Origin: Arthrobacter sp. StoSoilB5
GTDB lineage: Bacteria; Actinomycetota; Actinomycetes; Actinomycetales; Micrococcaceae
DNA length: 64,000 nt
Direction of reading: 5' to 3'
NCBI RefSeq assembly: GCF_019977235.1
Contig: NZ_AP024646.1
Coordinates: 2,480,001-2,544,000 of the forward strand
The position numbers and the translations under genes are program-made. This document shows, piece by piece, positions 27,824 through 41,272 of this stretch (position 1 is the stretch's first letter; each line of letters starts with the position of its first letter). A model generated the notes under the pieces. That model saw nothing but the letters and a program-made list of their open reading frames with translations. It ran no database searches and was not told the DNA's origin.

Positions 27824-28768
27824 CTATAAATCGTCTTCTTGATCCAGGGCGAACCCGCGGAAGCTGGACTGGACTCGCCGGGCGTATGCCGATCTCATGG
27901 CTCGGAAACACTCTTGGATCGCAGGGTGGCTCGAGCGACCTTTCAGGGTGGCGAATAGGACTTCGCGTTTCAGAAGTGGTGTTAGTGGTCGGACGGAGAG
28001 TCCTTGCTGGTGGCCAGTGAGTGCCAGGCCGGGAAGGACTGAAATCGCCAGGCCCGCGCGAACCATCTGCAGCACTGTTGTGGTGTCTCGGCAGTCACAG
28101 GTGATGTTGGGGCTGAAGCCCTCGGCCAGGCACGCATCCACGATTGAGGAGTGGTAGATCCTGGCTGATCTGTTTAGCGCCCATTCCTCTTCGGCTAGAT
28201 GGGCCAACGGAACGGTATCGAGTTTGCGGAAGGGGTGCTTCTCGGACATGACAACATAAAAGTCATCACCGAACAGTGGTTGGTAGCTCACTGCTTCGTT
28301 GCGTGGATCTTGTCTGGACAGATTGTCCAGGACTGCAACGTCAGCCCTTTTGGTCATGAGGTCGACCATGCCTTCAGCTGGTTCGTGCTCGAACATGAAG
28401 ACTTTCAGCTGAGGGTGCGAGGAGCGCAGCAGTGAGATGGTCGTGGGCAGAACCGTCGAGGCGAAAGATGGAAAAGCTGAGATGCGCAGGTCTCCGGAGA
28501 TGGAGTTCCGTGAGACGGCGATTTCGGCGTCTATGCGCTCGAGTGATTCAAAGACTTCGTGGCTTTGTTCGACGAGGCGGAGTCCTGCGCCCGTGAGTTG
28601 GACGCTGCGTCCGGCTCGTTCAACGAGTACCAGCCCAGTATCTTTTTCGAGTTGGGAAAGTTGCTGGGAAACGGCAGGTCTGGTCAAGCCCAACGAGTCA
28701 GCGACCGCAGAGATGGTCCCCAGAAATGACAGTTCCCGCAGTAGGCGTAGACGTTGGACGTTGATCAT
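27824..28768 (-). CDS. LysR-type regulator divergent from the DUF4392/GDH operon
   Basis: 314 residues, ATG at 28768. Residues 1-60 form the LysR winged helix (INVQRLRLLRELSFLGTIS, then LTRPAVSQQLSQLEKDTGLV), and the substrate-binding domain includes ISAFPSFASTVLPTTISLL, NITCDCRDTTTVLQMVRAGL and SVLPGLALTG. It is a strong paralogue of the damaged gene at 5103-6074, colinear over the whole length. It is transcribed away from the hydroxyacid dehydrogenase operon across a 389-bp AT-rich region, the classic layout of a LysR activator and its target. The effector is probably the substrate of that pathway. Intact. Confidence 0.92.
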   Translation of the reverse strand: MINVQRLRLLRELSFLGTISAVADSLGLTRPAVSQQLSQLEKDTGLVLVERAGRSVQLTGAGLRLVEQSHEVFESLERIDAEIAVSRNSISGDLRISAFPSFASTVLPTTISLLRSSHPQLKVFMFEHEPAEGMVDLMTKRADVAVLDNLSRQDPRNEAVSYQPLFGDDFYVVMSEKHPFRKLDTVPLAHLAEEEWALNRSARIYHSSIVDACLAEGFSPNITCDCRDTTTVLQMVRAGLAISVLPGLALTGHQQGLSVRPLTPLLKREVLFATLKGRSSHPAIQECFRAMRSAYARRVQSSFRGFALDQEDDL

Positions 28769-29157: not shown

Positions 29158-30057
29158 ATGGCCACACTTTCATTCATCGGCGTCGGCCGCATGGGATCTG
29201 GCATGGCAGCACGGCTTCTCGAAGCAGGACACACCGTTCAAATCTTCGACCCAAATACCGCGGCCGTTGAGGCCCTTGTCCATCAGGGCGCCATCGCGAC
29301 CTCGTCGCCTGCCAAGGCAGCCCAAGGCGCGGAGGCCGTCTTCACCAGTCTCCCCAACCCGGCAATCCTGCGTGATGCCATCGAGGGCCCGGACGGTGTC
29401 CTAGCATCCGAGGTCTCCGGCGTCACGATCGTCGACGTCAGTACTGTTGATCCCGAAACCGCACGTTCCCTTGCCGCGACCGTTGAAGCTCACGGGGGCC
29501 GCTTCGTCGATTCACCCGTCAGCGGCGGTGTAGCCGGGGCAGCTGCAGGGACGCTCTTGCTCATGGTCGGCGCGGAATCTCAGGACTTGGAGAACGTCCG
29601 TCCTTACCTCGAGCAGCTGGCAGCGCGGATCGTGCACTGCGGCCCCGTCGGAGCCGGCCAGTTGACCAAGCTCAGCCACAACATGCTCGTTGCCATCAAC
29701 ACGGTGGCCGCTGGTGAAGTCCTGGCAGCAGCGGTGAAAGCCGGCGGCAACCTCGAAACACTGACCGAGGTGTACACAGCAGGTTTGGCAGGCAGCAAGA
29801 TGCTGGACCACTTCGGCAAGACGCTCTTCACCGAGGAACGACCGCCGCTGTTCGCCCTTGACCTGATGCACAAGGACATCAGCCTCTGTCTGAAGGAATT
29901 CGGGCAGTTCCCAATGCCTGTGAGCCAGCTCGTCATGCAGACCTACAACGCTGCCCGAGCAAAGGGGCTCGGCGGACAGGACTCCACGGAGGTCAACGAA
30001 ATCTATGAAGAACTGTTCGGCCTGCAGCTGCGCAAGAACACCAAGGAGAGCAACTAA
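29158..30057 (+). CDS. NAD(P)-dependent beta-hydroxyacid dehydrogenase (HIBADH family)
   Basis: 299 residues. The N-terminal Rossmann motif is FIGVGRMGSGMAARLL (residues 5-20). RFVDSPVSGGVAGAAAGTL near 120 is the substrate-binding DSPVSGG signature, and GAGQLTKLSHNML near 170 carries the catalytic Lys. The family oxidises 3-hydroxyisobutyrate, tartronate semialdehyde-type, 4-hydroxybutyrate or 2-(hydroxymethyl)glutarate substrates to semialdehydes. Its stop overlaps the aldehyde dehydrogenase start (TAATG), so the semialdehyde it makes is probably oxidised by that partner. First gene of the LysR-linked operon. The specific substrate cannot be read from the sequence. Confidence 0.9.
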   Translation: MATLSFIGVGRMGSGMAARLLEAGHTVQIFDPNTAAVEALVHQGAIATSSPAKAAQGAEAVFTSLPNPAILRDAIEGPDGVLASEVSGVTIVDVSTVDPETARSLAATVEAHGGRFVDSPVSGGVAGAAAGTLLLMVGAESQDLENVRPYLEQLAARIVHCGPVGAGQLTKLSHNMLVAINTVAAGEVLAAAVKAGGNLETLTEVYTAGLAGSKMLDHFGKTLFTEERPPLFALDLMHKDISLCLKEFGQFPMPVSQLVMQTYNAARAKGLGGQDSTEVNEIYEELFGLQLRKNTKESN

Positions 30058-31529
30058 TGAATGCCCAGGCCAGCCTCGTCCTTCCCAGCAAGGGCACCAC
30101 AGGACTCCTGATCGACGGACATTGGATCGACCCGAAGGACGGCGGCACCCTTGAGGTGCAGAACCCGAGCAACCGGTCCACCGTCGCCGTGATCGGACGC
30201 AGCACCGCAGCGGATGTCGACCGCGCCGTCTCCTCTGCCCAAGAAGCCTTTCGCACCTGGCGCCAGCGCCCCGCCCGTGAACGTGGCGCCTTCCTGACCC
30301 GTCTCGGTGACGCAGTTGCTGAAAACGCCGAAGCGATCGCCCGCCTGCTGGCAGCCGAAACCGGCAACGCCATCCGCACCCAGTCCCGCGGCGAAGTGGC
30401 CTCCACCGTTGAGGTTCTCCGCTACTACGGCGGCACCGCCTCGGAACAAAAGGGCGAAACCTTGCCCCTGGGACAGGGCCTGTTCAGTTACTCCACCCGC
30501 GACCCGCTCGGTGTCGTCGCTGCGATCATCCCGTGGAACTCACCACTGGTTCTGGGCGCCGTGAAGATCGGCATGGCTTTGGCCACCGGCAACACGTTGA
30601 TCCTCAAGCCGGCAGAAGACGCTCCCCTCGCGGTGATCCGAATCTGCGAACTGGCCGCCGAAATCCTTCCGCCGGGTGTGCTCAACGTTGTCACCGGCCG
30701 CGGCTCGGATGCCGGGGCCGCACTGTCCAAGCACCCGGACGTCGCCAAGGTCTCCTTTACTGGATCCAGCGAAGTCGGGCGCGGTGTCCTCCACGCCGTC
30801 GCCGACCGTATCGGCCACGCAACCCTGGAACTGGGCGGCAAGAGCCCGGCCGTTGTCTTCCCTGACAGCAACAACGAGGAAACGGCCAAGAACGTCGTCG
30901 CGGCCATGCGCTTCGCACGCCAGGGCCAATCCTGCACCGCAGGATCCCGGCTCTTCGTCCACGCCGACATTTGGGATGACTTCATGCCCAAGGTCATCGC
31001 CGCCGTCGAAGACCTCGTTATCGGGGATGCGCTCGTTGAAGCCACGGACATGGGTGCGGTCATCAACACCACCCGCTACGAAGAAATCTCCGACTTCGTT
31101 CAGCAGGCAGCGGACCAGGGAGCTCAGTTCCTCACCGGTGGCCCTTCGACCAAGCTTGACGGTGACACTCCGTTGAGGCTGACCCCGACGGTCATCGCCG
31201 GCGTAGACAACAACTGGAGGATCGCCCGCGAGGAAGTCTTCGGTCCCGTCTTGGTTGCCATCCCCTGGCAGACCGAAGAAGAGGTCGTGACCTGGGCCAA
31301 TGATACCCACTACGGCCTCGCCGCGTATGTCTTCACCCAGGACCTCAACACCGCCCTGCGGATGGCAGAGAACATCGACGCCGGATGGGTCCAGATCAAC
31401 CGCGCTGGCGGACAGCTCCCGGGCATGTCCTACGGCGGCCGCAAACAAAGCGGTATCGGCGCTGAGTACTCCATCGAGGGAGCCCTCGAAAGCTACACCC
31501 AGCGCAAGAGCGTCACTATCGCTCTCTGA
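30057..31529 (+). CDS. Aldehyde dehydrogenase
   Basis: 490 residues, coupled to the upstream dehydrogenase by a one-base overlap. The NAD-binding motif PWNSPLVLGAVKIGMALATGNTLILKPAED is present. VSFTGSSEVGRGVL, the catalytic base Glu258 in LELGGKSP and the nucleophile Cys293 in GQSCTAGSRLFV are all there, and EEVFGPVLVAIPW and MSYGGRKQSGIGAEY complete the fold. A standard-length, intact member of the NAD(P)+ aldehyde dehydrogenase superfamily. With the HIBADH partner it would convert an alcohol to an acid through a semialdehyde. Unlike the two aldehyde dehydrogenases at 15-18 kb it has no frame damage. Confidence 0.93.
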   Translation: MNAQASLVLPSKGTTGLLIDGHWIDPKDGGTLEVQNPSNRSTVAVIGRSTAADVDRAVSSAQEAFRTWRQRPARERGAFLTRLGDAVAENAEAIARLLAAETGNAIRTQSRGEVASTVEVLRYYGGTASEQKGETLPLGQGLFSYSTRDPLGVVAAIIPWNSPLVLGAVKIGMALATGNTLILKPAEDAPLAVIRICELAAEILPPGVLNVVTGRGSDAGAALSKHPDVAKVSFTGSSEVGRGVLHAVADRIGHATLELGGKSPAVVFPDSNNEETAKNVVAAMRFARQGQSCTAGSRLFVHADIWDDFMPKVIAAVEDLVIGDALVEATDMGAVINTTRYEEISDFVQQAADQGAQFLTGGPSTKLDGDTPLRLTPTVIAGVDNNWRIAREEVFGPVLVAIPWQTEEEVVTWANDTHYGLAAYVFTQDLNTALRMAENIDAGWVQINRAGGQLPGMSYGGRKQSGIGAEYSIEGALESYTQRKSVTIAL

Positions 31530-31666
31530 AAGACCGGCGGGAGAAGGACCCAGAACTCGGCAACAACCTTCTCCCGCCGCACCACCCCCCCATCTGGCCG
31601 GCAATGACGCCGGACAGGCATAACCCCAGCATCCGGCCAACCGGGCTGGACTCGAAAGGACCCACC

Positions 31667-32980
31667 ATGAGCAGTCAAGGTGTCATTGAACCGGTTCCGG
31701 TCAATACCAAGGGGAAAGTTTCGGTCAGGGCAGCAGCCAGTTCCTTCATCGGAACCACCATCGAATGGTACGACTACTTTCTTTACGGCACTGCCGCTTC
31801 CCTGATCTTCCCGAGGGTGTTCTTCTCGGACATGGAGCCAGCCATTGCAACACTGAGCTCCCTGGCAACCTTCGCTGTTGCCTTCCTCCTGCGCCCCGTC
31901 GGTGGCGTGGTCATCGGACACTTCGGTGACAAACTCGGCCGCAAAAAGATGCTGATCCTGACCCTGCTCGTCATGGGACTGTGTACAGGACTGATCGGTT
32001 TGATCCCCGAGGAACGGACCATCGGCATTTGGGCCCCGATCCTGCTGATTGTCCTGCGCGTCTTCCAGGGCTTCGCCCTCGGAGGTGAATGGGGTGGTGC
32101 TGCACTGATGTCGGTCGAGCACGCACCGGCCGGACGCCGCGGCCTCTTTGGAGCCACCATGCAGATGGGCGTTCCCGCAGGCTTGCTGCTTTCCACCGGC
32201 GCGTTCGCCGCCGTATCCACCCTGCCCGACGATGCGTTCTTCAGCTGGGGCTGGCGTATCCCGTTCCTGGCGAGCTTCCTGTTGCTGGTCGTGGGCATGT
32301 ACATCCGCCTTGCCGTTACTGAACCGGATGCCTTCAAGAAGGTCCAGGAAGAAGGCAAGGTCGCCAAACTCCCGATCCGCGAAGTCCTCGCCAACGATAA
32401 GCGCCGTACCCTGAACCTTGTCTTCCTGCAGAGCGCAGCGAACGTCGGCTACTTCCTCATCACCGTCTACTCCCTGGTCTACGTCACCGAAACCCTGAAA
32501 CTGCCCCGCACCTGGGCCGTGACCGGTCTACTGCTCGGTGCTGCCGTGGACCTCTGCCTCCAGCCCGTCTTTGGCTGGCTCTCGGACCGCTTCGGCCGCA
32601 AGAAGGTCTACGGCGCCGGGTCGCTGTTCCTGGGCCTCTACGCCTTCCCGTTCTTCTGGCTTCTTGAATCCGCCACCGAACCGCTGGTTTGGCTGGCGCT
32701 GATCCTGGGCCTGGGCATCGGCCACGCATCCACGGGTTCCCTGCACGCGGTCATCTACGCCGAACAGTACCCGGCACGTTATCGCTACACCGGATCCTCA
32801 CTGGCCTACCAGCTCTCAGGCATCATCTCCAGCGCCCCCACACCGCTGGTCGCGGCCTGGCTCGTCAGCACCACCGGCCAGTCGAAGTTCGTCGCCGTCT
32901 ACGTCATCATCGCTGCGGCAGTCAGCGTCACCTGCACGTTCATGCTGAAAGAAACCTACAAGAGCCGGATCGACGTCTAA
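31667..32980 (+). CDS. MFS transporter, metabolite:H+ symporter (MHS) family
   Basis: 437 residues from the ATG at 31667 (GAAAGGA ribosome-binding site); in-frame codons upstream look noncoding. FIGTTIEWYDYFLYGTAASLIF is the first helix typical of MHS members (KgtP, ShiA, ProP). RPVGGVVIGHFGDKLGRKKMLI and RVFQGFALGGEWGGAALM are the signature loops, and 12 hydrophobic segments are visible, with the second-half motif GWLSDRFGRKKVY. MHS proteins import 2-oxoglutarate, citrate, shikimate, proline/betaine or related compounds with protons. It is the probable importer for this operon. 137 bp separate it from the aldehyde dehydrogenase; 2 bp separate it from the first DUF4392 gene. Confidence 0.9.
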   Translation: MSSQGVIEPVPVNTKGKVSVRAAASSFIGTTIEWYDYFLYGTAASLIFPRVFFSDMEPAIATLSSLATFAVAFLLRPVGGVVIGHFGDKLGRKKMLILTLLVMGLCTGLIGLIPEERTIGIWAPILLIVLRVFQGFALGGEWGGAALMSVEHAPAGRRGLFGATMQMGVPAGLLLSTGAFAAVSTLPDDAFFSWGWRIPFLASFLLLVVGMYIRLAVTEPDAFKKVQEEGKVAKLPIREVLANDKRRTLNLVFLQSAANVGYFLITVYSLVYVTETLKLPRTWAVTGLLLGAAVDLCLQPVFGWLSDRFGRKKVYGAGSLFLGLYAFPFFWLLESATEPLVWLALILGLGIGHASTGSLHAVIYAEQYPARYRYTGSSLAYQLSGIISSAPTPLVAAWLVSTTGQSKFVAVYVIIAAAVSVTCTFMLKETYKSRIDV

Positions 32981-32982
32981 CC

Positions 32983-34110
32983 ATGAGTAACTCCCCGAAA
33001 GCATCCCACCAACACACAGAAGCACCCACAGCCGCCCCTGTGGCCGACGAACGGCACCTGGCCGCAGTCATGGAAAGCCTGGACCGGATCATGACTATTG
33101 AGATCCGACCAGCGGATGGCAAGCTACCAGCTGGGATTGTCTCAGGACTCTACGGCGCCTGCCGGGATGCTTTCGGGGAGGCCCTGACCGGACTTGCCGA
33201 ACGGAAACTACGCGAATCCGTAGCGACGAACTCAACAGTCCTGATCGCCACGGGAGCAGGCATCGGCCCGTGGTTGCCCCAAGGCGAAACGGACGGACCG
33301 ATGGGCGCAGCCGCACTCGCCCGGGCGATCACCCGGACCCTCCGCGCCAAGGTCGTCATGGTCACAGAGGCCCGCCACGCACCCGCCGTCCGGGCCGCGA
33401 TCAAGGCACTGAACTATCCACCAGGTTTTGAACCGGAAGTTGAACTTGTCGAACCAGGGGAGCGCGAAGGCCGGCAGGCAGCCCAGCGCCTGATCACCCT
33501 CTACCACCCCACTGCCGCGATCTTCATCGAACGCGACGGCCCCGGCACCCAGGGACGGTTCCACGGAGTACGGGGTGACTGCCGCTCCGCAGATGACGTC
33601 GCTCAGCTCCACCACCTGGCCAACCTTGCCGCCCGCTCGTCCATCCTGACCATCGGCATCGGCGATGGCGGCAACGAAATCGGCTTCGGCGCCCACCGTC
33701 GCCGCATCACCCAACGGCTCCCCGGGGACGGGACCTGCCGCGCCGGATGCGACTCGGGCATCTACACCGTCACCAAAACCCAAGTAACCATCAGTGCATC
33801 GGTCTCCAACTGGGGCGCCTACGCCCTGGCCGCAGCGCTGGGAGCAAGTTTCCGGCTCCCCGAGGCCTGCCACAGCGCAGCAGCCGAGGAAGTTCTCCTG
33901 AAAGCCTGCCTGGAAGCAGGTGCCCGGGACGGCGCCACAGGAACATCGGCATTGCAGACCGACGGAATCCCCTTGGCCACCCACCAGCACGTCATTGCCC
34001 TGATGGAGACCGTCGCGGCAACCACCGCGACCCGTTCCTTGACCGTCGAACCCCAACCCAGCCACATCTTCACACCAGCAGCAACGAAAGGCCCCCGTTT
34101 TGTTAGCTAG
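32983..34110 (+). CDS. DUF4392 protein, D-glutamate cyclase-like (copy A)
   Basis: 375 residues, starting two bases after the transporter stop. The family (GLUCM-like C-terminal, DUF4392) includes vertebrate D-glutamate cyclase, which interconverts D-glutamate and 5-oxo-D-proline. Motifs: LDRIMTIEIRPAD near residue 28, TNSTVLIATGAGIGPWLPQGETDGPMGAAALARAI near 80-115, ERDGPGTQGRFHGVRGDCRS near 180, LTIGIGDGGNEIGFG with Gly227-Gly234, and VSNWGAYALAAAL. Compared with copy B it has a longer, Ala/His-rich N-terminus and a longer C-terminal tail. The stop overlaps the TTG start of the PLP enzyme. The role in lactam or D-amino-acid conversion is inferred from the family. Confidence 0.82.
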   Translation: MSNSPKASHQHTEAPTAAPVADERHLAAVMESLDRIMTIEIRPADGKLPAGIVSGLYGACRDAFGEALTGLAERKLRESVATNSTVLIATGAGIGPWLPQGETDGPMGAAALARAITRTLRAKVVMVTEARHAPAVRAAIKALNYPPGFEPEVELVEPGEREGRQAAQRLITLYHPTAAIFIERDGPGTQGRFHGVRGDCRSADDVAQLHHLANLAARSSILTIGIGDGGNEIGFGAHRRRITQRLPGDGTCRAGCDSGIYTVTKTQVTISASVSNWGAYALAAALGASFRLPEACHSAAAEEVLLKACLEAGARDGATGTSALQTDGIPLATHQHVIALMETVAATTATRSLTVEPQPSHIFTPAATKGPRFVS

Positions 34111-35386
34111 CCAGTCCACGGCACCCACGGCCAAGTCCGACCGGTTCGGTAACCCCATCGACCCGGTAGTCGGCTACGCCCGCGGCGCCATCATCGATTC
34201 CAGCATCGCCGAAGGCCGCCGCCTCCGCCACGGACAGGCCATCGCCGCCGAACGTGTCCGGGCTGCCGGGGCCGACGCCGTAGCTGTCTACACCGGCAAC
34301 CAAAGGGACCTGCCTCTGCGGGTCGAAGACCTGGCAACCTACGCCGAAGAATGGGTCGGTCCTGGCCTGTTCGCCGAAGAACTCCGCCAGGCAGCGATCG
34401 GCCACCTCGGCGGACGGCCCGAAGACGCCGCCGCCGTATTCAACCGCACCACCGCCGGCATCATCGCCGTGATCGGCGCACTCTCGGCCGGGAAGCCCGT
34501 GGTTTCGATCGTTCCCGTCAACGCCCGTTCCCACGCCTCCCTGCCCCGGGGATCCCGGCTCGCCGGGGTCCAGTGCCTCGAATCCGGCATCGACGGTGAC
34601 TGGCGGAACCTTATCGAAATGCACCAGCCAGCCCTTGTGGTTGTCACCACTGTCACCTCAAGCCTTGAACGCCTCAAGGATGAGGACACCATCGCAGCTG
34701 CGAAATTCGCCCAAGCCAACGGTGCCGTCGTCCTGCTCGACGAAGCCTACGGTGCACGCCTTCGGACCGTCCTGCACGGCGGCGCACCGTCGCTGCAACT
34801 CGGAGCTGACCTCAGCATCACCAACTGCGACAAAGCCGGCCTCGCAGGACCCCGCGCCGGCATCCTGGTCGGTCGACCTCCGCTGGTTGCCGCAGCCTCG
34901 GCAAAGGCCTCAGAAGTCGGCGCCGAAGCACGTGCACCGATCGCCGCCGGAGCCCTGCGATCCCTGCAAAGCTTTGACCCGCAGGACCTACTGACCGAAT
35001 CCCAGTCCGGGCAGCAGATCTCCGACGCCCTCGAAGCCCGCCTCGGCGCGGTCGTCGAACGCAGCGACCTGGGCCCCATGGTCCACGAAGACGATATCCA
35101 CGCCATCGCCCTGCAACGGGCCGGTCAGGACAGAACTACCCTGGTGCCTTCCGAAACGGCATCCGCGCTCGGCGCACTCCTGCTCCGGGACCACGGCATC
35201 CTGACCGTCAACACCCACGGCCAGCCCGGCGCCCGGGTCTCCCTTCGCCTCAAACCCACCCTTGACGCGTTGCGCCGTACAGGCGGACCGCTGAAAGTCG
35301 CTGCCGCCGTCGACGAATCCCTGGACGCCCTTGCCGCCCAATTCCACGACACCGACGCCATTTCCACTCTGATCCTTGGGAGCTGA
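34100..35386 (+). CDS. PLP-dependent SelA/DgaE-like enzyme (lyase or racemase)
   Basis: 428 residues from a TTG at 34100, inside the end of the DUF4392-A gene, with GAAAGG about nine bases upstream; no later ATG fits the N-terminal homology. Fold-type I PLP enzyme related to SelA and D-glucosaminate-6-phosphate ammonia-lyase: NRTTAGIIAVIGALSAGKPV near residue 115 (cofactor phosphate-binding loop), VVLLDEAYGARLRTVLHGG (Asp for the pyridine nitrogen), and SITNCDKAGLAGPRAGILVG with Lys245 as the likely Schiff-base lysine. It could racemise, deaminate by elimination, or cleave an amino acid. Lying between two DUF4392 genes, it is likely to share their substrate. The exact reaction is not inferable. 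Confidence 0.78.
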   Translation: MLASQSTAPTAKSDRFGNPIDPVVGYARGAIIDSSIAEGRRLRHGQAIAAERVRAAGADAVAVYTGNQRDLPLRVEDLATYAEEWVGPGLFAEELRQAAIGHLGGRPEDAAAVFNRTTAGIIAVIGALSAGKPVVSIVPVNARSHASLPRGSRLAGVQCLESGIDGDWRNLIEMHQPALVVVTTVTSSLERLKDEDTIAAAKFAQANGAVVLLDEAYGARLRTVLHGGAPSLQLGADLSITNCDKAGLAGPRAGILVGRPPLVAAASAKASEVGAEARAPIAAGALRSLQSFDPQDLLTESQSGQQISDALEARLGAVVERSDLGPMVHEDDIHAIALQRAGQDRTTLVPSETASALGALLLRDHGILTVNTHGQPGARVSLRLKPTLDALRRTGGPLKVAAAVDESLDALAAQFHDTDAISTLILGS

Positions 35387-35390
35387 CACC

Positions 35391-36443
35391 ATGACCGAAC
35401 TGACCACCTACGAACCCAGCGCACTGAGCCGCTCCCTTGCCGCCAAAGACAACCGACTCGACCGCATCGTCAACATCGACTTCGGCGGCCGTGGAGTCGA
35501 GCACCTCTACGAGGCAGCCCTGACACGGCAGGAAGGCTGGTCCCTGGTCGGCCGCGCCGCGGAACTGCTCGCCGCTGTCCCCGAGAAATCCACCGTCCTG
35601 ATGACCACCGGTTCAGTTTCCCGAGCATGGATCTCACCGACCATCGGCGAAAACGACGGACCCGCCGGCGCGGCCGTCATCGCCCGCGCCCTGGCCCTGG
35701 GCAAGCGCGCCACCCCCATCGTGTTGGCCGAAGAAACCCTCATCCCATCACTGGGCCCGATTTTCGAAACCGCCGGGCTGACTGTCCTGCCACCGGAAAA
35801 GGCCATCGAGGCCAACACCGGAGGAACGCTGCTGGCCGTCGCGCTCGTACCGTTCACCACCAGCGACGACGAAGCACCGTCAGCCGCGCAGCAGGTTCTC
35901 GAACAATATAAGCCCTCCTTGCTGTTCTCCACCGAACGCGTCGGACGGAACAAGAACGGTTTCTACTACAACATGCGAGGGATCAACTTCGGCCAGGACC
36001 GCGCCCGCGTGGACCACGTCTTCGACCTCGCCTTCGAACGCGGCATCCCCACCGTCGCAGTAGGCGACGGGGGCAACGAAATCGGCATGGGCAACGTCGC
36101 CGAAGCCGTCGCAGCCCACATCCCGCACGGCGCCGACGGATCCACCGCTTGCGGCGGAGGACTGGGAGCAACCACCCAGGTCCAAGCTCTCGTAACGGCC
36201 GCCTGCTCCAACTGGGGCTGCTACGCGATCACCGCCGCCCTCGCAGCCCGTTTGGCCGATCCGAAAATTCTCCACACCCCCGAACTGGAAGCAGCCCTGT
36301 TGCGCCGGGGCGTGGACGTTGGACTCATCAACTCCGTCGTCGGCATCGTCGACCCCAAGGTCGACAACATCGACGTTTCCACGCACCTTGCCGTCGTGGA
36401 ACTTCTCTCCGCCATCATCCGCCCGGGCTTGTCCCTGAATTAG
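35391..36443 (+). CDS. DUF4392 protein, D-glutamate cyclase-like (copy B)
   Basis: 350 residues from the ATG at 35391, four bases after the PLP gene stop. Same family as copy A: LDRIVNIDFGGRG near residue 24, KSTVLMTTGSVSRAWISPTIGENDGPAGAAVIARAL, STERVGRNKNGFYYNMRGINFG, VAVGDGGNEIGMG with Gly225-Gly232, and ACSNWGCYAITAAL. A CysGlyGlyGly-rich loop (ADGSTACGGGLGATTQ) resembles the DGTCRAGCD loop of copy A and may mark a metal or substrate site. The two copies are clearly diverged but keep the same motif order, which suggests either a heteromer or two activities rather than a recent duplication. Confidence 0.82.
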   Translation: MTELTTYEPSALSRSLAAKDNRLDRIVNIDFGGRGVEHLYEAALTRQEGWSLVGRAAELLAAVPEKSTVLMTTGSVSRAWISPTIGENDGPAGAAVIARALALGKRATPIVLAEETLIPSLGPIFETAGLTVLPPEKAIEANTGGTLLAVALVPFTTSDDEAPSAAQQVLEQYKPSLLFSTERVGRNKNGFYYNMRGINFGQDRARVDHVFDLAFERGIPTVAVGDGGNEIGMGNVAEAVAAHIPHGADGSTACGGGLGATTQVQALVTAACSNWGCYAITAALAARLADPKILHTPELEAALLRRGVDVGLINSVVGIVDPKVDNIDVSTHLAVVELLSAIIRPGLSLN

Positions 36444-36487
36444 AAACCCAACCGCGCAGGCCCACTCAAGGATCGAAGAAGCTCCCC

Positions 36488-39400
36488 ATGCCGCACCTGA
36501 CCGAAGACCAGTCCCGGAAGCACAGCCGCGGAACCCGTGACACCACGTCCCACCTCTCCGCTGTTCCGCACGGCACCGCCACAAACTTCGCCGACTGGAT
36601 CACAGAGTGGGACACGACGTTTGCGAACGAAGCACGACGCTCACTCGGAACTGGTCAAGCTGACGCCCTGATCCGCCGCTGGATCAGCGCTCTGCCGCTG
36701 TCCTATCGTGAGTCGTTCACGGCCAAGGATGCCCTCGCGGATTTCCTGGACATCGAGGCCGGCACAGGTGCGGCATGGGAACACACTCTGCGGTTCTACT
36801 TGTCGGAAACGGCCGGGCAGCAGCGCCTGAAAATCATTAGTCCCGCTGAGCTGTCCCTTGGAGATCTGGTCCCTCCGTTCCGGGACATGGGCATCACGAT
36901 CCGGGACGAACGCCCTTACCGTATCGCCCCCGACGAGCATCCTGTCGCGTGGATCTACGACCTTGGCATTGACGGAACCAGCCAGATACCAGTTGACGAT
37001 TCAACCCGTGACCGAATCGAAGAATCGATCCGGGCAGTCTGGACAGGGGCGACTGAAACAGATGCCTTCCACGGGCTCATCACCACCGCTGGGCTCTCAC
37101 ACCGTGACGCGCTCTTGCTACGCGCCTACTTCCGCTACCTGCGCCAAAGCGGGCTGGGCTTCTCGCTGGAAAGAGTCGCCCATGTACTGTCCGGACACGG
37201 GCACATTGCAGCCCAGCTGATCGGCTACTTTCACGGCCGGTTCGCTCCCGACGCTGGGTCGACCGATGATCGCGGCCACGGAATCCTCGAGGATCTTCTC
37301 GAAACCTTGGATGACATCTCCGCCAGGGACGATGACAAGATCATCCGCGCGTACCTGGACGCAATGAAAGCCACCGTCAGGACCAATTTCTTCCAAACAG
37401 GCCCCGACGGGGAACTGCATGCCTACATCTCCTTGAAGATCGCTGCAGCCGAACTTGGGCTGCTCCCCGAACCACGACCGGAACACGAAATCTGGGTTTA
37501 CGCGCCCACCGTTGAAGGTATCCACCTCCGGTTCGGATCCATCGCCCGCGGCGGTCTTCGCTGGAGTGACCGCCGCGAAGATTTCCGCACGGAAGCTCTC
37601 GACCTCGTCAAAGCTCAAGTCGTCAAAAACGCCGTCATCGTCCCCACCGGAGCCAAAGGCTGCTTCTACGTCAAAAACACCGGAACGGGGGATCCCGGCA
37701 CGGCAGGCCGTGAGGCTTACAGGACCTTCATCAACGGACTCCTTGACCTGACCGACAACGTTATTCCAGGCGTGAACGGGACAATCATCGAAGCCCCGGC
37801 CAACGTCGTCCGCCACGACGCCGATGACCCCTACCTGGTGGTCGCCGCCGACAAGGGAACGGCCCGATTCTCGGATCTTGCCAACGAGGTAGCGGCAACC
37901 CGTGGCTACTGGCTCCGCGATGCCTTCGCCTCCGGCGGCACTGTGGGATACGACCACAAGGCCATGGGCATCACAGCCCGTGGCGCTTGGGAATCGGTCA
38001 AGCGGCACCTCATGGAGGCGGATTTCCCTTGGAACTCCGGGACCATCGACACCGTCGGGATCGGTGACATGAGCGGTGACGTGTTCGGCAACGGCATGCT
38101 TTACACCGACAAAATCGCACTCAAAGCCGCCTTCGATCACCGCCACATCTTCCTCGACCCCACCCCGGACCCGGCCGTGTCGTACGAGGAACGTTCCCGT
38201 CTGTTCGGACTGGAACGCTCCTCCTGGGACGACTACGACCGGGGCAAGCTATCCGGCGGTGGAGGGGTTTTCTCCCGACAAGCCAAGCTCATCCGAATCT
38301 CGGCCGAGGCCGCTCATGCCCTGCGCTACGAAGGCCCCGTAACGCTCACGCCTGAAGATCTCATCCGGGTCATCCTCAAAGCCCCGGCAACTCTGCTGTT
38401 CAACGGGGGCGTCGGCACGTACATCAAGCACAGCCTCGAATCCCATGCCGATGTCATGGACAAGGCAAACGACGCCGTACGGATCGACGCGGACCAAATC
38501 AGAGCCCAGATCATCGGTGAAGGCGGAAACCTCGGCGTCACGGCCCGAGGCCGTGTCCAGGCATCACTGTCCGGTGTCCGGATCAACGCCGACGCCGTCG
38601 ATAATTCCGCCGGTGTCGACTGTTCCGACCACGAGGTCAATATCAAGATCCTCCTTGACGCCGCTGTAGCTGCAGGAGACATCCCTGCGGCCGACAGGGC
38701 AGAGATCCTGCGGGCCATGACCAACGACGTCGCACAAGCCGTGCTGGCCAACAATTACGAACAGAACTTCGCGCTCGGAACGACTGCCGCCCACACCTCG
38801 TCAATGACCCGGGTCTACCTGCGGGCGATGAAATTCATGGAGGACAAAGGCCGGCTCCACCGCGGCCTGGACTCGATGCCCAGCGACGAGGAAATCCTGC
38901 GCCGCCTTGATGAAGGGCAGAGTCTTGCCCGCCCGGAAATCTGCATTCTTCTTGCCCACATGAAGTCCTCCCTGAGCCAGGAAATCCTTGCCAGTGACAT
39001 CCCCGACGAAGCCTGGGCTCAGCAGGAACTGGACGACTACTTCCCTGACCAGCTCCTGGAGATGGCGCGGCACCACGTTCAAGCACATCCCCTGAAACGG
39101 GAAATCATCGCCACGTCCCTGGCCAACCGTATCCTGAACCACTCAGGCGTCACTTTCGTGTTTCGCCTCTGCGAAGAGACCCGCGCCACCGAAATCGACG
39201 CTATCAAGGCCTACTTCATTTCCGCCAGGATCTGGGACCAGCCCGAATTCTTCCGCTATATGCGCAGCCTGGACGGCAAAGTCCCTGCCTCCGCGCAGGA
39301 AAGAATGGACCGGATCATGCGCCGCTTGCTGGACAGGTCCAGCCGGTGGTTCCTCAAGCACCAGACAGGAACCCTGGATGTCACAGCAGAAGTAGCCAAG

Positions 39401-39955
39401 TACAAACGGCCCGTCGAAAAACTGTCCGCACAATTGCAGACGCTGCTGCGTCCGGGCCAGCTCCAAGGAATCAATGACAAAGCCGCGGAGCTGACAAACC
39501 TTGGAGTCCCACGCAACTTCGCAGAGAAGTCCGCCGCCCTGCTGTATCAGTACCCCCTGCTGGACGTCGCCGAAGCCGCGGCCAACACAGGCATCCCAGC
39601 CGCGCAGCTGGCCACCACTTACTTCGACCTATTCGAACAAATCGAAGGCAGCCGACTGCTCGGGCGTATCGATTCCCTGCCCCGAAACGATCCATGGGAA
39701 ACCATGGCCCGGGCGGCACTGCGCGAAGACTTCTACGACGTACTCTCCAGCGCCTCCACCGCCCTAGCCGCCCCACAATACGGACGCTCCGCGCAGGCAC
39801 CGAACCCCGTCGTCGAAAGTCGGCTCGGGCTCATCACGGATGCCATCGCTGAACTTACAGGTCGGGAACCCTCGACGAACCCGGACTTTGAAATCCTCAC
39901 CATCGTGCTGCGTACCCTCAGAAGCATGCGTGCGGCAGCCTTTGCGCCCCGCTAA
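36488..39955 (+). CDS. Large NAD-specific glutamate dehydrogenase (Bac_GDH family)
   Basis: 1155 residues from the ATG at 36488; the open frame upstream overlaps copy B out of frame and is not coding. It converts glutamate to 2-oxoglutarate and ammonium with NAD. The C-terminal catalytic region reads EIWVYAPTVEGIHLRFGSIARGGLRWSDRREDFRTEALDLVKAQ, then VVKNAVIVPTGAKGCFYVKN with Lys390, GTIIEAPANVVRHDADDPYLVVAADKGTA, and GDMSGDVFGNGMLYTDKI. The usual 180-kDa members (GdhB type) have about 1600 residues; this one lacks roughly 450 at the N-terminus, the ACT-like regulatory portion, while the catalytic part is complete. It therefore may be regulated differently, perhaps by the GNAT-AAA+ protein 30 bp downstream. 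It would feed the pathway end product into the TCA cycle. Confidence 0.9.
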   Translation: MPHLTEDQSRKHSRGTRDTTSHLSAVPHGTATNFADWITEWDTTFANEARRSLGTGQADALIRRWISALPLSYRESFTAKDALADFLDIEAGTGAAWEHTLRFYLSETAGQQRLKIISPAELSLGDLVPPFRDMGITIRDERPYRIAPDEHPVAWIYDLGIDGTSQIPVDDSTRDRIEESIRAVWTGATETDAFHGLITTAGLSHRDALLLRAYFRYLRQSGLGFSLERVAHVLSGHGHIAAQLIGYFHGRFAPDAGSTDDRGHGILEDLLETLDDISARDDDKIIRAYLDAMKATVRTNFFQTGPDGELHAYISLKIAAAELGLLPEPRPEHEIWVYAPTVEGIHLRFGSIARGGLRWSDRREDFRTEALDLVKAQVVKNAVIVPTGAKGCFYVKNTGTGDPGTAGREAYRTFINGLLDLTDNVIPGVNGTIIEAPANVVRHDADDPYLVVAADKGTARFSDLANEVAATRGYWLRDAFASGGTVGYDHKAMGITARGAWESVKRHLMEADFPWNSGTIDTVGIGDMSGDVFGNGMLYTDKIALKAAFDHRHIFLDPTPDPAVSYEERSRLFGLERSSWDDYDRGKLSGGGGVFSRQAKLIRISAEAAHALRYEGPVTLTPEDLIRVILKAPATLLFNGGVGTYIKHSLESHADVMDKANDAVRIDADQIRAQIIGEGGNLGVTARGRVQASLSGVRINADAVDNSAGVDCSDHEVNIKILLDAAVAAGDIPAADRAEILRAMTNDVAQAVLANNYEQNFALGTTAAHTSSMTRVYLRAMKFMEDKGRLHRGLDSMPSDEEILRRLDEGQSLARPEICILLAHMKSSLSQEILASDIPDEAWAQQELDDYFPDQLLEMARHHVQAHPLKREIIATSLANRILNHSGVTFVFRLCEETRATEIDAIKAYFISARIWDQPEFFRYMRSLDGKVPASAQERMDRIMRRLLDRSSRWFLKHQTGTLDVTAEVAKYKRPVEKLSAQLQTLLRPGQLQGINDKAAELTNLGVPRNFAEKSAALLYQYPLLDVAEAAANTGIPAAQLATTYFDLFEQIEGSRLLGRIDSLPRNDPWETMARAALREDFYDVLSSASTALAAPQYGRSAQAPNPVVESRLGLITDAIAELTGREPSTNPDFEILTIVLRTLRSMRAAAFAPR

Positions 39956-39985
39956 CCACCAGACCATCTCCGAAGGACACACCAC

Positions 39986-41272
39986 ATGCACTCCTGGCGC
40001 ATCCGAGAATTGCAACGCGAAGACCTTGACCAATTAATCACGCTCTGGCACTCCTCCCGGGACGGGCACCTTCACTCGGTCTACAGCATCTCGGACATCC
40101 TCGCCGCAGCCGCAGACGGTAAAAGCGTTGGGGCATTCATCGGCGCTGACCTCGTCGGAGCCGTAGTATTCCGCATTCAGGCAGACCGGGCATGGATCCT
40201 CATGCTCGGCCAAGCCCCCGAGTGGCGCAATCAAGGTCTGGGCAGCTCGCTGATCTCGGCGCTGGAGGAAAGCCTCGCCGAGACCCAAGTCGTCAAGATC
40301 TCCGCGCTCCTGCCCGCAAAGGAAACCCGGGTCCAGGCCTTCCATAACAGCGGATTCGGACCCCAGGAAGAACTCGTCTACTTCGAACGCGGCGTCCCCG
40401 TCCAGCCCAAGGAAATCCAAACCCTGGAACGCCTTGGCGGAACACCATCCCCCCGAGGGCTGTGGGAAGACATGGGAGGGATGCAACACGAGAAGGAACT
40501 GATCGAACGCAGGCTCATCCTGCCCCTGGCCAAGGAAGAACTCGCCCGCTCCCTCGGTGTCGTGCCGCCCCGCTCCGTTGTGCTGTTCGGCCCACCCGGC
40601 ACCGGAAAGACGACGTTCGCAAAAGCCGTAGCCTCACGGCTCGGATGGCCTTTTGTTGAAGTCTTCCCCTCGCGCCTGGCCTCGGACCCCAACGGACTCG
40701 CTGCTGCTCTCCGCCAGACCTTCCAAGACATCTCGCACCTGGAACACGCTGTGGTGTTCATCGATGAAGTCGAGGAAATTGCCGCCCAACGAAGTGAAGG
40801 TCAACCATCGCCTTTACAAGGGGTCACCAACGAACTCCTCAAAACGATTCCGGCCTTCCGCGCCAAAGAAGGCCGGCTGCTGATCTGTGCAACAAACTTC
40901 ATCCGCTCCCTGGACCAAGCCTTCCTTCGCCACGGCCGGTTTGACTACGTCATTCCCATCGGCCTGCCTGACTTCGATGCCCGCAGGGCCATCTGGGAAC
41001 GGTACATACCCGACCGCGCCAGCGAGCACGTCGACATCGAAGTCCTCGCCAAAAGCACCGAGCGGTTCTCCCCAGCTGACATCGAATTCGCAGCCCGCAA
41101 AGCCTCCCAGCACGCCCTGGAAGAAGAGGTGTACGGCACCCCCGGAGAAGACGCGGACACCGCACTACAAACCCGGATTTACCTCGAAGCCATTGCCCAG
41201 ACCCGGGCAACCGCTAGTGAGAAAACAGTCACCGACTTCCTCGAGGACATCCGCCGGCTGGGACGTACTTAA
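39986..41272 (+). CDS. GNAT acetyltransferase-AAA+ ATPase fusion
   Basis: 428 residues from the ATG at 39986, 30 bp after the GDH stop. Residues 1-140 are a GNAT acetyltransferase: WRIRELQREDLDQLITLWHSS, then LGQAPEWRNQGLGSSLISALEES with the acetyl-CoA binding R-x-x-G-x-G/A loop. Residues 150-400 are an AAA+ ATPase: Walker A GPPGTGKTT (202-210), Walker B VVFIDEVEE (Asp260/Glu261), and a sensor/arginine-finger LRHGRFDYVIP. The linker has EDMGGMQHEKELIERRLILPL, the start typical of FtsH/CDC48-like AAA modules. Combining acetyltransferase and ATPase in one chain is unusual. Its place after the GDH suggests it remodels or acetylates enzymes of the operon; that is inference. Confidence 0.88.
   Translation: MHSWRIRELQREDLDQLITLWHSSRDGHLHSVYSISDILAAAADGKSVGAFIGADLVGAVVFRIQADRAWILMLGQAPEWRNQGLGSSLISALEESLAETQVVKISALLPAKETRVQAFHNSGFGPQEELVYFERGVPVQPKEIQTLERLGGTPSPRGLWEDMGGMQHEKELIERRLILPLAKEELARSLGVVPPRSVVLFGPPGTGKTTFAKAVASRLGWPFVEVFPSRLASDPNGLAAALRQTFQDISHLEHAVVFIDEVEEIAAQRSEGQPSPLQGVTNELLKTIPAFRAKEGRLLICATNFIRSLDQAFLRHGRFDYVIPIGLPDFDARRAIWERYIPDRASEHVDIEVLAKSTERFSPADIEFAARKASQHALEEEVYGTPGEDADTALQTRIYLEAIAQTRATASEKTVTDFLEDIRRLGRT

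What the first reader, a model, noticed from the sequence alone, without database searches (positions are those of the whole stretch)
32983..41272. Candidate undescribed system: two DUF4392 (D-glutamate cyclase-like) proteins around a SelA-like PLP enzyme, with GDH and a GNAT-AAA+ protein
Five tightly packed genes (gaps or overlaps of 4 to 44 bp) join two diverged DUF4392 copies, a PLP enzyme between them, a large NAD-glutamate dehydrogenase lacking its regulatory N-terminus, and an acetyltransferase-ATPase fusion. An MHS importer, an aldehyde dehydrogenase and a hydroxyacid dehydrogenase precede them under a divergent LysR gene. The family link to D-glutamate/5-oxo-D-proline suggests import and conversion of a D-amino acid, lactam or related compound to glutamate and 2-oxoglutarate. 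I do not know this gene combination as a described pathway.
Basis: partly seen in the sequence, partly recalled or inferred. Interest (0 to 1): 0.9.

Follow-up and report, generated by a model that had tools for sequence, protein, structure and literature searches.

The report
Conserved, undescribed amino-acid breakdown operon
A soil bacterium carries a rare gene set, shared with distantly related land and sea bacteria, that probably breaks down an unidentified glutamate-like nutrient using an enzyme pair whose job has not been worked out.

Summary
In 69 loci encoding the PLP enzyme, an aldehyde dehydrogenase lies within 3 kb upstream in 67 and a DUF4392/GLUCM gene directly downstream in 66; GLUCM1 is directly upstream in 23. 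The GDH recurs in 1 of 69, the GNAT-AAA+ gene in 0 of 69; the latter is genus-wide (149 of 150 genomes). The LysR, hydroxyacid dehydrogenase, aldehyde dehydrogenase and importer belong to the conserved set. Two layouts exist: one like the window's, and a mostly marine one with MttB-like and DAO-GcvT demethylases and a class III aminotransferase. Both GLUCM copies keep all six metal ligands of TON_0340 (as do 104 of 104 homologues). Elsewhere GLUCM sits with PF07286 and 5-oxoprolinase genes, so the glutamate/5-oxoproline link gains support; yet the window genome lacks PF07286. Best reading: a LysR-controlled catabolic operon oxidising an alcohol to an aldehyde to an acid, with PLP and GLUCM enzymes releasing ammonium and a glutamate-family product. 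Substrate unknown. I found no published description in open PMC papers.

The parts
27824..28768 (-). LysR-family regulator, divergent from the operon
   Evidence: PF03466+PF00126; cluster LysR-I holds 26 genes in 24 of the 69 loci
29158..30057 (+). beta-hydroxyacid dehydrogenase (HIBADH-like); K171 and N175 at the positions recalled as catalytic for this family; best solved relative 3cky, 2-hydroxymethyl glutarate dehydrogenase
30057..31529 (+). aldehyde dehydrogenase, nearest NCBIfam models betaine-aldehyde dehydrogenase and similar (below cut-off); C293 and E258 present; core gene
   Evidence: within 3 kb upstream of PLP in 67 of 69 loci
31604..32980 (+). MHS-type metabolite/H+ symporter; replaced or joined by polar amino-acid ABC transporters in other type I loci
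   Evidence: TIGR00883 412.6 bits, cut-off 443.45; MHS in 10 and amino-acid ABC permeases in 14 of 23 type I loci
32983..34110 (+). GLUCM1, PF14336 (DUF4392); metal ligands E102 D104 E183 D228 E232 D327
   Evidence: clade G1 in tree
34100..35386 (+). PLP enzyme related to TIGR03576/MJ0158 (SelA-like); Schiff-base lysine K245 by motif; core gene
35391..36443 (+). GLUCM2, PF14336; metal ligands E92 D94 E187 D231 E235 D330 (numbered from TTG 35376); core gene
   Evidence: directly after PLP in 66 of 69 loci
36488..39955 (+). short large-type NAD-glutamate dehydrogenase (1155 aa), no ACT1/HM1/ACT2 model matched; local addition, a large GDH also follows GLUCM2 in Mycobacterium sp. 236 (L026)
39986..41272 (+). 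GNAT-AAA+ fusion; paralogue of a genus-wide gene, not part of the conserved system

Best explanation
A LysR-controlled catabolic operon for a small amino-acid-like nutrient. The MHS symporter imports it. The HIBADH-like enzyme oxidises a primary alcohol next to a carboxylate to an aldehyde and the ALDH oxidises that to a carboxylate, so the intermediate becomes an amino-dicarboxylate of the glutamate family. GLUCM1 and GLUCM2, two anciently separate metal enzymes, open, close or otherwise rework a lactam or amide of that compound, and the MJ0158-type PLP enzyme removes the amino group by beta-elimination, giving a 2-oxo acid and ammonium. The added GDH ties the products to the glutamate pool. 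In most marine relatives the same aldehyde would be reached from a methylated amine: MttB and DAO-GcvT strip methyl groups and a class III aminotransferase makes the aldehyde. Shown here: gene content, order, correlated divergence, conserved residues. Inferred: every reaction. Not known: the substrate.
For: Core ALDH-PLP-GLUCM2 order in proteobacteria, actinobacteria and acidimicrobiia; correlated divergence of PLP, GLUCM2 and ALDH (r 0.91-0.93 over 63-65 loci, window included); catalytic-type residues present; all six metal ligands in 104 of 104 GLUCM proteins. Alcohol or amine feeding the ALDH: HIBADH in 41, class III aminotransferase in 27, one or the other in 62 of 69 loci. Amino-acid import: polar amino-acid ABC permease genes in 14 of 23 type I loci; the two binding proteins examined, both of L006, resemble those for basic amino acids and cystine. 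Glutamate link: GLUCM with PF07286 and 5-oxoprolinase genes; PF07286 in 5 of 69 cluster loci; large GDH after GLUCM2 in the window and L026; a glutamate-synthase-domain gene after GLUCM2 in L028. Beta-elimination: the TIGR03576/SelA relation, and a GLUCM gene in Saccharopolyspora between a PALP-type PLP enzyme and a RidA-like gene (L155).
Confidence: 0.35

Rival explanations
1. One reading: the operon imports and degrades D-glutamate or 5-oxo-D-proline itself (or a plain lactam), GLUCM1/GLUCM2 interconverting D-glutamate and lactam and GDH finishing.
For: GLUCM genes elsewhere lie with PF07286, PxpABC, class IV aminotransferase and GH3 genes; mouse D-glutamate cyclase contains this domain (PMC5339696, passages).
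Against: No PF07286 in the window genome; no 5-oxoprolinase homologue in the window, though three PF02626 genes lie elsewhere in the genome; HIBADH, ALDH and the marine demethylases are not needed for these compounds. What I read does not show which part of the mammalian enzyme is catalytic.
Confidence: 0.15
2. Glycine-forming route: the PLP enzyme is a retro-aldolase (beta-hydroxy-amino acid to glycine plus aldehyde, oxidised by the ALDH), or an aminomalonate decarboxylase after HIBADH and ALDH have oxidised a serine- or diaminopropionate-like side chain.
For: ALDH lies upstream of PLP in 67 of 69 loci. Threonine aldolases are the nearest folds after MJ0158 by VIA-align and among the first by Foldseek. 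In G482 a 41% PLP homologue lies with two HIBADH, a close relative of this ALDH, a permease nearest to D-Ser/D-Ala/Gly transporters, an SHMT-like gene and L-serine ammonia-lyase.
Against: Does not explain GLUCM1/GLUCM2 or the PF07286 and GDH neighbours; by sequence the only PDB relative of the PLP enzyme is MJ0158, and the fold is shared by many reactions.
Confidence: 0.17
3. Betaine-lipid or N-methylated-amine headgroup catabolism: the marine form degrades a trimethylated hydroxymethyl amino acid such as a betaine-lipid headgroup, and the land form an unmethylated analogue.
For: MttB in 31 and DAO-GcvT in 35 of 46 loci without directly upstream GLUCM1, in 0 of 23 with it; the cluster's MttB is a distinct paralogue (57-85% identical to the L057 copy in five other genomes, all other MttB hits in the six genomes at most 49%); HIBADH resembles 2-hydroxymethyl glutarate dehydrogenase.
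Against: Type I loci have no demethylases; no lipase or ether-cleaving gene turned up among the recurring families I annotated; the substrate idea is recalled chemistry, not a tool result.
Confidence: 0.12
4. GLUCM proteins are Mn-dependent phosphatases acting on a phosphorylated intermediate.
Against: That activity was described as very low and no physiological substrate was known; no kinase turned up among the recurring families I annotated.
Confidence: 0.05

Closest known systems
D-glutamate cyclase DGLUCY (9030617O03Rik / C14orf159)
   Same: shares the DUF4392/PF14336 domain
   Different: that its N-terminal part is PF07286-like is recalled; the window and its genome have no PF07286
TON_0340 (PDB 4fc5, 5gl2), Mn-binding protein of Thermococcus
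   Same: fold and all six acidic metal ligands
   Different: homodimer there, two ancient paralogues in an operon here; true substrate unknown in both
MJ0158 (PDB 2aeu), TIGR03576 PLP family
   Different: 183 bits against a cut-off of 304 for TIGR03576; bacterial operon context; I found no paper naming MJ0158
5-oxoprolinase operon pxpABC
   Same: glutamate/lactam theme; Pxp-like genes accompany GLUCM in 3 of 11 outside loci
   Different: no PxpA, PxpB or PxpC homologue in the window or the 69 loci
Roseobacter glycine betaine demethylation (MtgB; that it is MttB-type is recalled) and DAO-GcvT demethylases
   Same: marine form carries an MttB-family gene plus one or two DAO-GcvT genes
   Different: separate MttB paralogue, joined to ALDH-PLP-GLUCM2; absent from the window

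Membership tests
GLUCM-like_C (PF14336, DUF4392) | score above the curated cut-off | tested here: met
   191 and 224 bits against 27.9
GLUCM-like_C (PF14336, DUF4392) | six acidic metal ligands of TON_0340 | tested here: met
   all six in both copies and in 104 of 104 sequences aligned
D-glutamate cyclase (enzyme) | PF07286 partner domain or gene | tested here: not met
   none in the window or in its genome
D-glutamate cyclase (enzyme) | conversion of D-glutamate to 5-oxo-D-proline | not testable with these tools
   needs an assay
TIGR03576 / MJ0158 PLP enzymes | match to the family model over its curated cut-off | tested here: not met
   182.9 bits against 304.45: a relative, not a member by that rule; MJ0158 is still the only PDB sequence relative
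TIGR03576 / MJ0158 PLP enzymes | Schiff-base lysine | tested here: met
   K245 invariant in the 18 aligned sequences
SelA selenocysteine synthase | match to a SelA model or selenium genes nearby | tested here: inconclusive
   no SelA family among Pfam and NCBIfam matches at 0.001; names such as 'selenocysteine synthase' come from the records
beta-hydroxyacid dehydrogenases (HIBADH type) | PF03446+PF14833 and the lysine/asparagine pair | tested here: met
   no equivalog cut-off reached, so substrate open
5-oxoprolinase pathway (pxpABC) | PxpA, PxpB and PxpC genes in the operon | tested here: not met
   no homologue in the window or the 69 loci by tblastn with L150/L152 proteins; PF02626 only elsewhere in the genome

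The most novel reading that the evidence does not exclude
ALDH-PLP-GLUCM2 is the core of an undescribed nitrogen-scavenging pathway: on land it degrades a hydroxymethyl amino acid and in the sea the methylated-amine counterpart of the same compound, through a new chemistry in which an MJ0158-family PLP enzyme and one or two di-metal GLUCM enzymes act as one unit. It would assign functions to both orphan families at once, including the DUF4392 part of mammalian D-glutamate cyclase.
Probability: 0.2. Interest if true: 0.75.

Novelty: new variant of a known kind. Interest (0 to 1): 0.55.

Why it matters
DUF4392/GLUCM proteins occur from archaea to mammalian mitochondria, and the MJ0158 PLP enzyme has had a structure since 2005, yet I found no settled reaction for either. 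The cluster ties both to named neighbours (alcohol/aldehyde oxidation, amine demethylation, amino-acid transport, PF07286, glutamate enzymes) in bacteria many of which are in culture, including soybean nodule isolates and roseobacters, so the question can be tested by gene removal and growth. The marine form may consume an unrecognised methylated nitrogen compound.

Tried and rejected
Rejected: the five-gene unit with GDH and GNAT-AAA+. GNAT-AAA+ paralogues in the genus stand near PutA, peptidase/P5C-reductase, prephenate-dehydratase and other genes, so they give no specific clue. My first thought that the D-glutamate link rests on the name only was given up after finding PF07286 and PxpABC beside other GLUCM genes. 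A selenium role (class V desulfurase-like gene and an 'Nterm_to_SelD'-type oxidoreductase in some type I loci) was dropped: both are sub-cut-off matches.

Led nowhere: ten literature searches. Searches (DUF4392; homarine; D-glutamate cyclase; betaine lipid; MJ0158: 0 papers; 2-hydroxymethyl-glutarate dehydrogenase: 0 papers; homoserine betaine; TIGR03576 and others; MttB), 93 (5-oxoprolinase/DUF1445). I judged by the listings (at most 25 papers each, abstracts cut) and saw none that shows this cluster. The library holds open-licence PMC only. Read: PMC5132392 abstract and outline, the first part of its results section and its phosphatase section; PMC5339696, PMC12478193, PMC6131576, PMC11580864 and PMC13274462 passages only. 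No promoter or terminator stood out (1 promoter-like site against 1.9 expected, 7 terminator-like against 12). A near-identity plasmid search gave only two GDH fragments. Structure matches of the PLP model beyond MJ0158 are shared by a whole fold type and decide nothing.

Limits: loci were fetched by PLP similarity, so counts are of GLUCM given PLP. In the reverse direction, 0 of 9 GLUCM loci of randomly drawn genomes (the centre genome left out) had a PLP homologue within the stretch fetched. Gene calls are my own simple caller, which can miss or clip genes. Some loci are near-copies (L005/L012; L009/L020/L021). The group of 46 loci without directly upstream GLUCM1 also holds type I-like or cut loci (L037, L067), a mixed one (L028) and the distant L004. 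L045's PF07286 copy is partial (146 aa) and its called frame gave no Pfam match. Of the neighbour families only one to three examples each were put through the family libraries (one FADox435; class V from L005, L008, L057), and some recurring families (such as c19, c23) were not annotated at all. The tree used 97 of 104 GLUCM sequences (seven near-copies or pieces dropped).
Full report
What is there. The window is bases 2480001-2544000 of a 5.3 Mb single-contig genome; the closest named PLP relative is from Pseudarthrobacter (91%). The divergent LysR gene and eight + strand genes were confirmed: HIBADH-like, ALDH, MHS importer, GLUCM1, PLP, GLUCM2, a short large-type GDH and a GNAT-AAA+ fusion. 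HIBADH K171/N175, ALDH C293/E258, PLP K245, a GDH lysine motif and AAA+ Walker motifs are present (the roles of these residues are recalled).

What is conserved. From 18 aligned PLP sequences, 63 loci were fetched from one-genome-per-species contigs; with five plasmid loci (18 plasmid records matched) and one distant actinobacterial locus (L004, 34%) this gives 69 loci. ALDH lies within 3 kb upstream of PLP in 67 of 69 and GLUCM2 directly downstream in 66 of 69. The three without GLUCM2 are L004, L064, and L070 where the contig ends; the two without ALDH are L004 and L067, where the contig begins just before PLP. GLUCM1 is directly upstream in 23 of 69; in L037 it is divergent and in L028 it lies further along. 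Identities of PLP, GLUCM2 and ALDH rise and fall together (r 0.91-0.93), without a control for species history.

Two layouts. Type I (GLUCM1 directly upstream; 23 loci: Burkholderiales, rhizobia including plasmids of soybean-nodule isolates, other alphaproteobacteria, Pantoea, Mycobacterium sp. 236) has HIBADH in 22 of 23, MHS in 10, amino-acid ABC permeases in 14, and no MttB, DAO-GcvT or class III aminotransferase of these clusters. The other 46 loci (mainly Rhodobacterales, Geminicoccaceae and Acidimicrobiia, marine by their names) have MttB in 31, DAO-GcvT in 35, class III aminotransferase in 27, HIBADH in 19 and a class V aminotransferase-like gene in 31 (families). HIBADH or the class III aminotransferase is present in 62 of 69 loci; MttB occurs with HIBADH in 13 and with the aminotransferase in 21. 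In the six genomes examined the cluster's MttB is a paralogue apart from the others.

What is local. GDH recurs once in 69 loci (L026) and GNAT-AAA+ never. GNAT-AAA+ relatives exist in 149 of 150 genomes of the genus, beside varied genes. The window's PLP gene has no close relative in the genus: 2 of 206 genomes match, its own and one at 41% identity. The operon is therefore probably a horizontal acquisition to which further genes were attached (inference).

The glutamate link. Of 11 GLUCM loci outside the cluster, 6 carry PF07286 (D-Glu_cyclase) within the stretch and 3 carry PxpB- and PxpC-like genes (L147, L150, L152). L150 has a class IV aminotransferase, GLUCM, PxpC, PxpB, PxpA and PF07286 in a row; L152 has the same row without PxpA, next to a GH3 gene. 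PF07286 also lies in 5 of the 69 cluster loci (L033, L045 partial, L046, L049, L052), in L052 overlapping GLUCM2 by 4 bp. In L028 a glutamate-synthase-domain gene follows GLUCM2. But the window genome has no PF07286, and 3 more of the 13 genomes searched lack it too; and no Pxp homologue lies in the window or the 69 loci.

Mechanism. HIBADH and, in most marine loci, a class III aminotransferase would both deliver aldehydes, and the ALDH is the shared next step. I therefore read the pathway as alcohol or amine to aldehyde to acid, followed by PLP and GLUCM steps that free ammonium and give a glutamate-family product. Gene order, correlated divergence and residues are shown; reactions and substrate are inferred.

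Novelty. In ten searches of the open PMC library (listed under Tried and rejected) I saw no description of this cluster; subscription papers and preprints are mostly not covered. It is best called a new variant of a known kind, a catabolic operon, with two core enzymes of unknown reaction.

Noticed in passing
   Followed up: no
   Followed up: partly
L019:1857-5188: A second, minimal LysR/PLP/GLUCM2 set, followed by a TctC-type receptor gene, lies beside the full cluster in Pseudorhodoferax soli.
   Followed up: partly
window 39986-41272 and genus-wide: A GNAT-AAA+ fusion occurs in nearly every genome of the genus examined (149 of 150), with extra paralogues near PutA and peptidase genes; its role is unknown.
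   Followed up: partly
L009 (Sinorhizobium fredii plasmid pSF25509a): The operon lies on a rhizobial plasmid a few kb from the T3SS effector gene nopM, suggesting a host-linked nutrient.
   Followed up: no
L152, L154: GLUCM with PF07286 beside GH3 genes and, in L154, an RpiR/SIS regulator: possibly peptidoglycan D-glutamate recycling.
   Followed up: no
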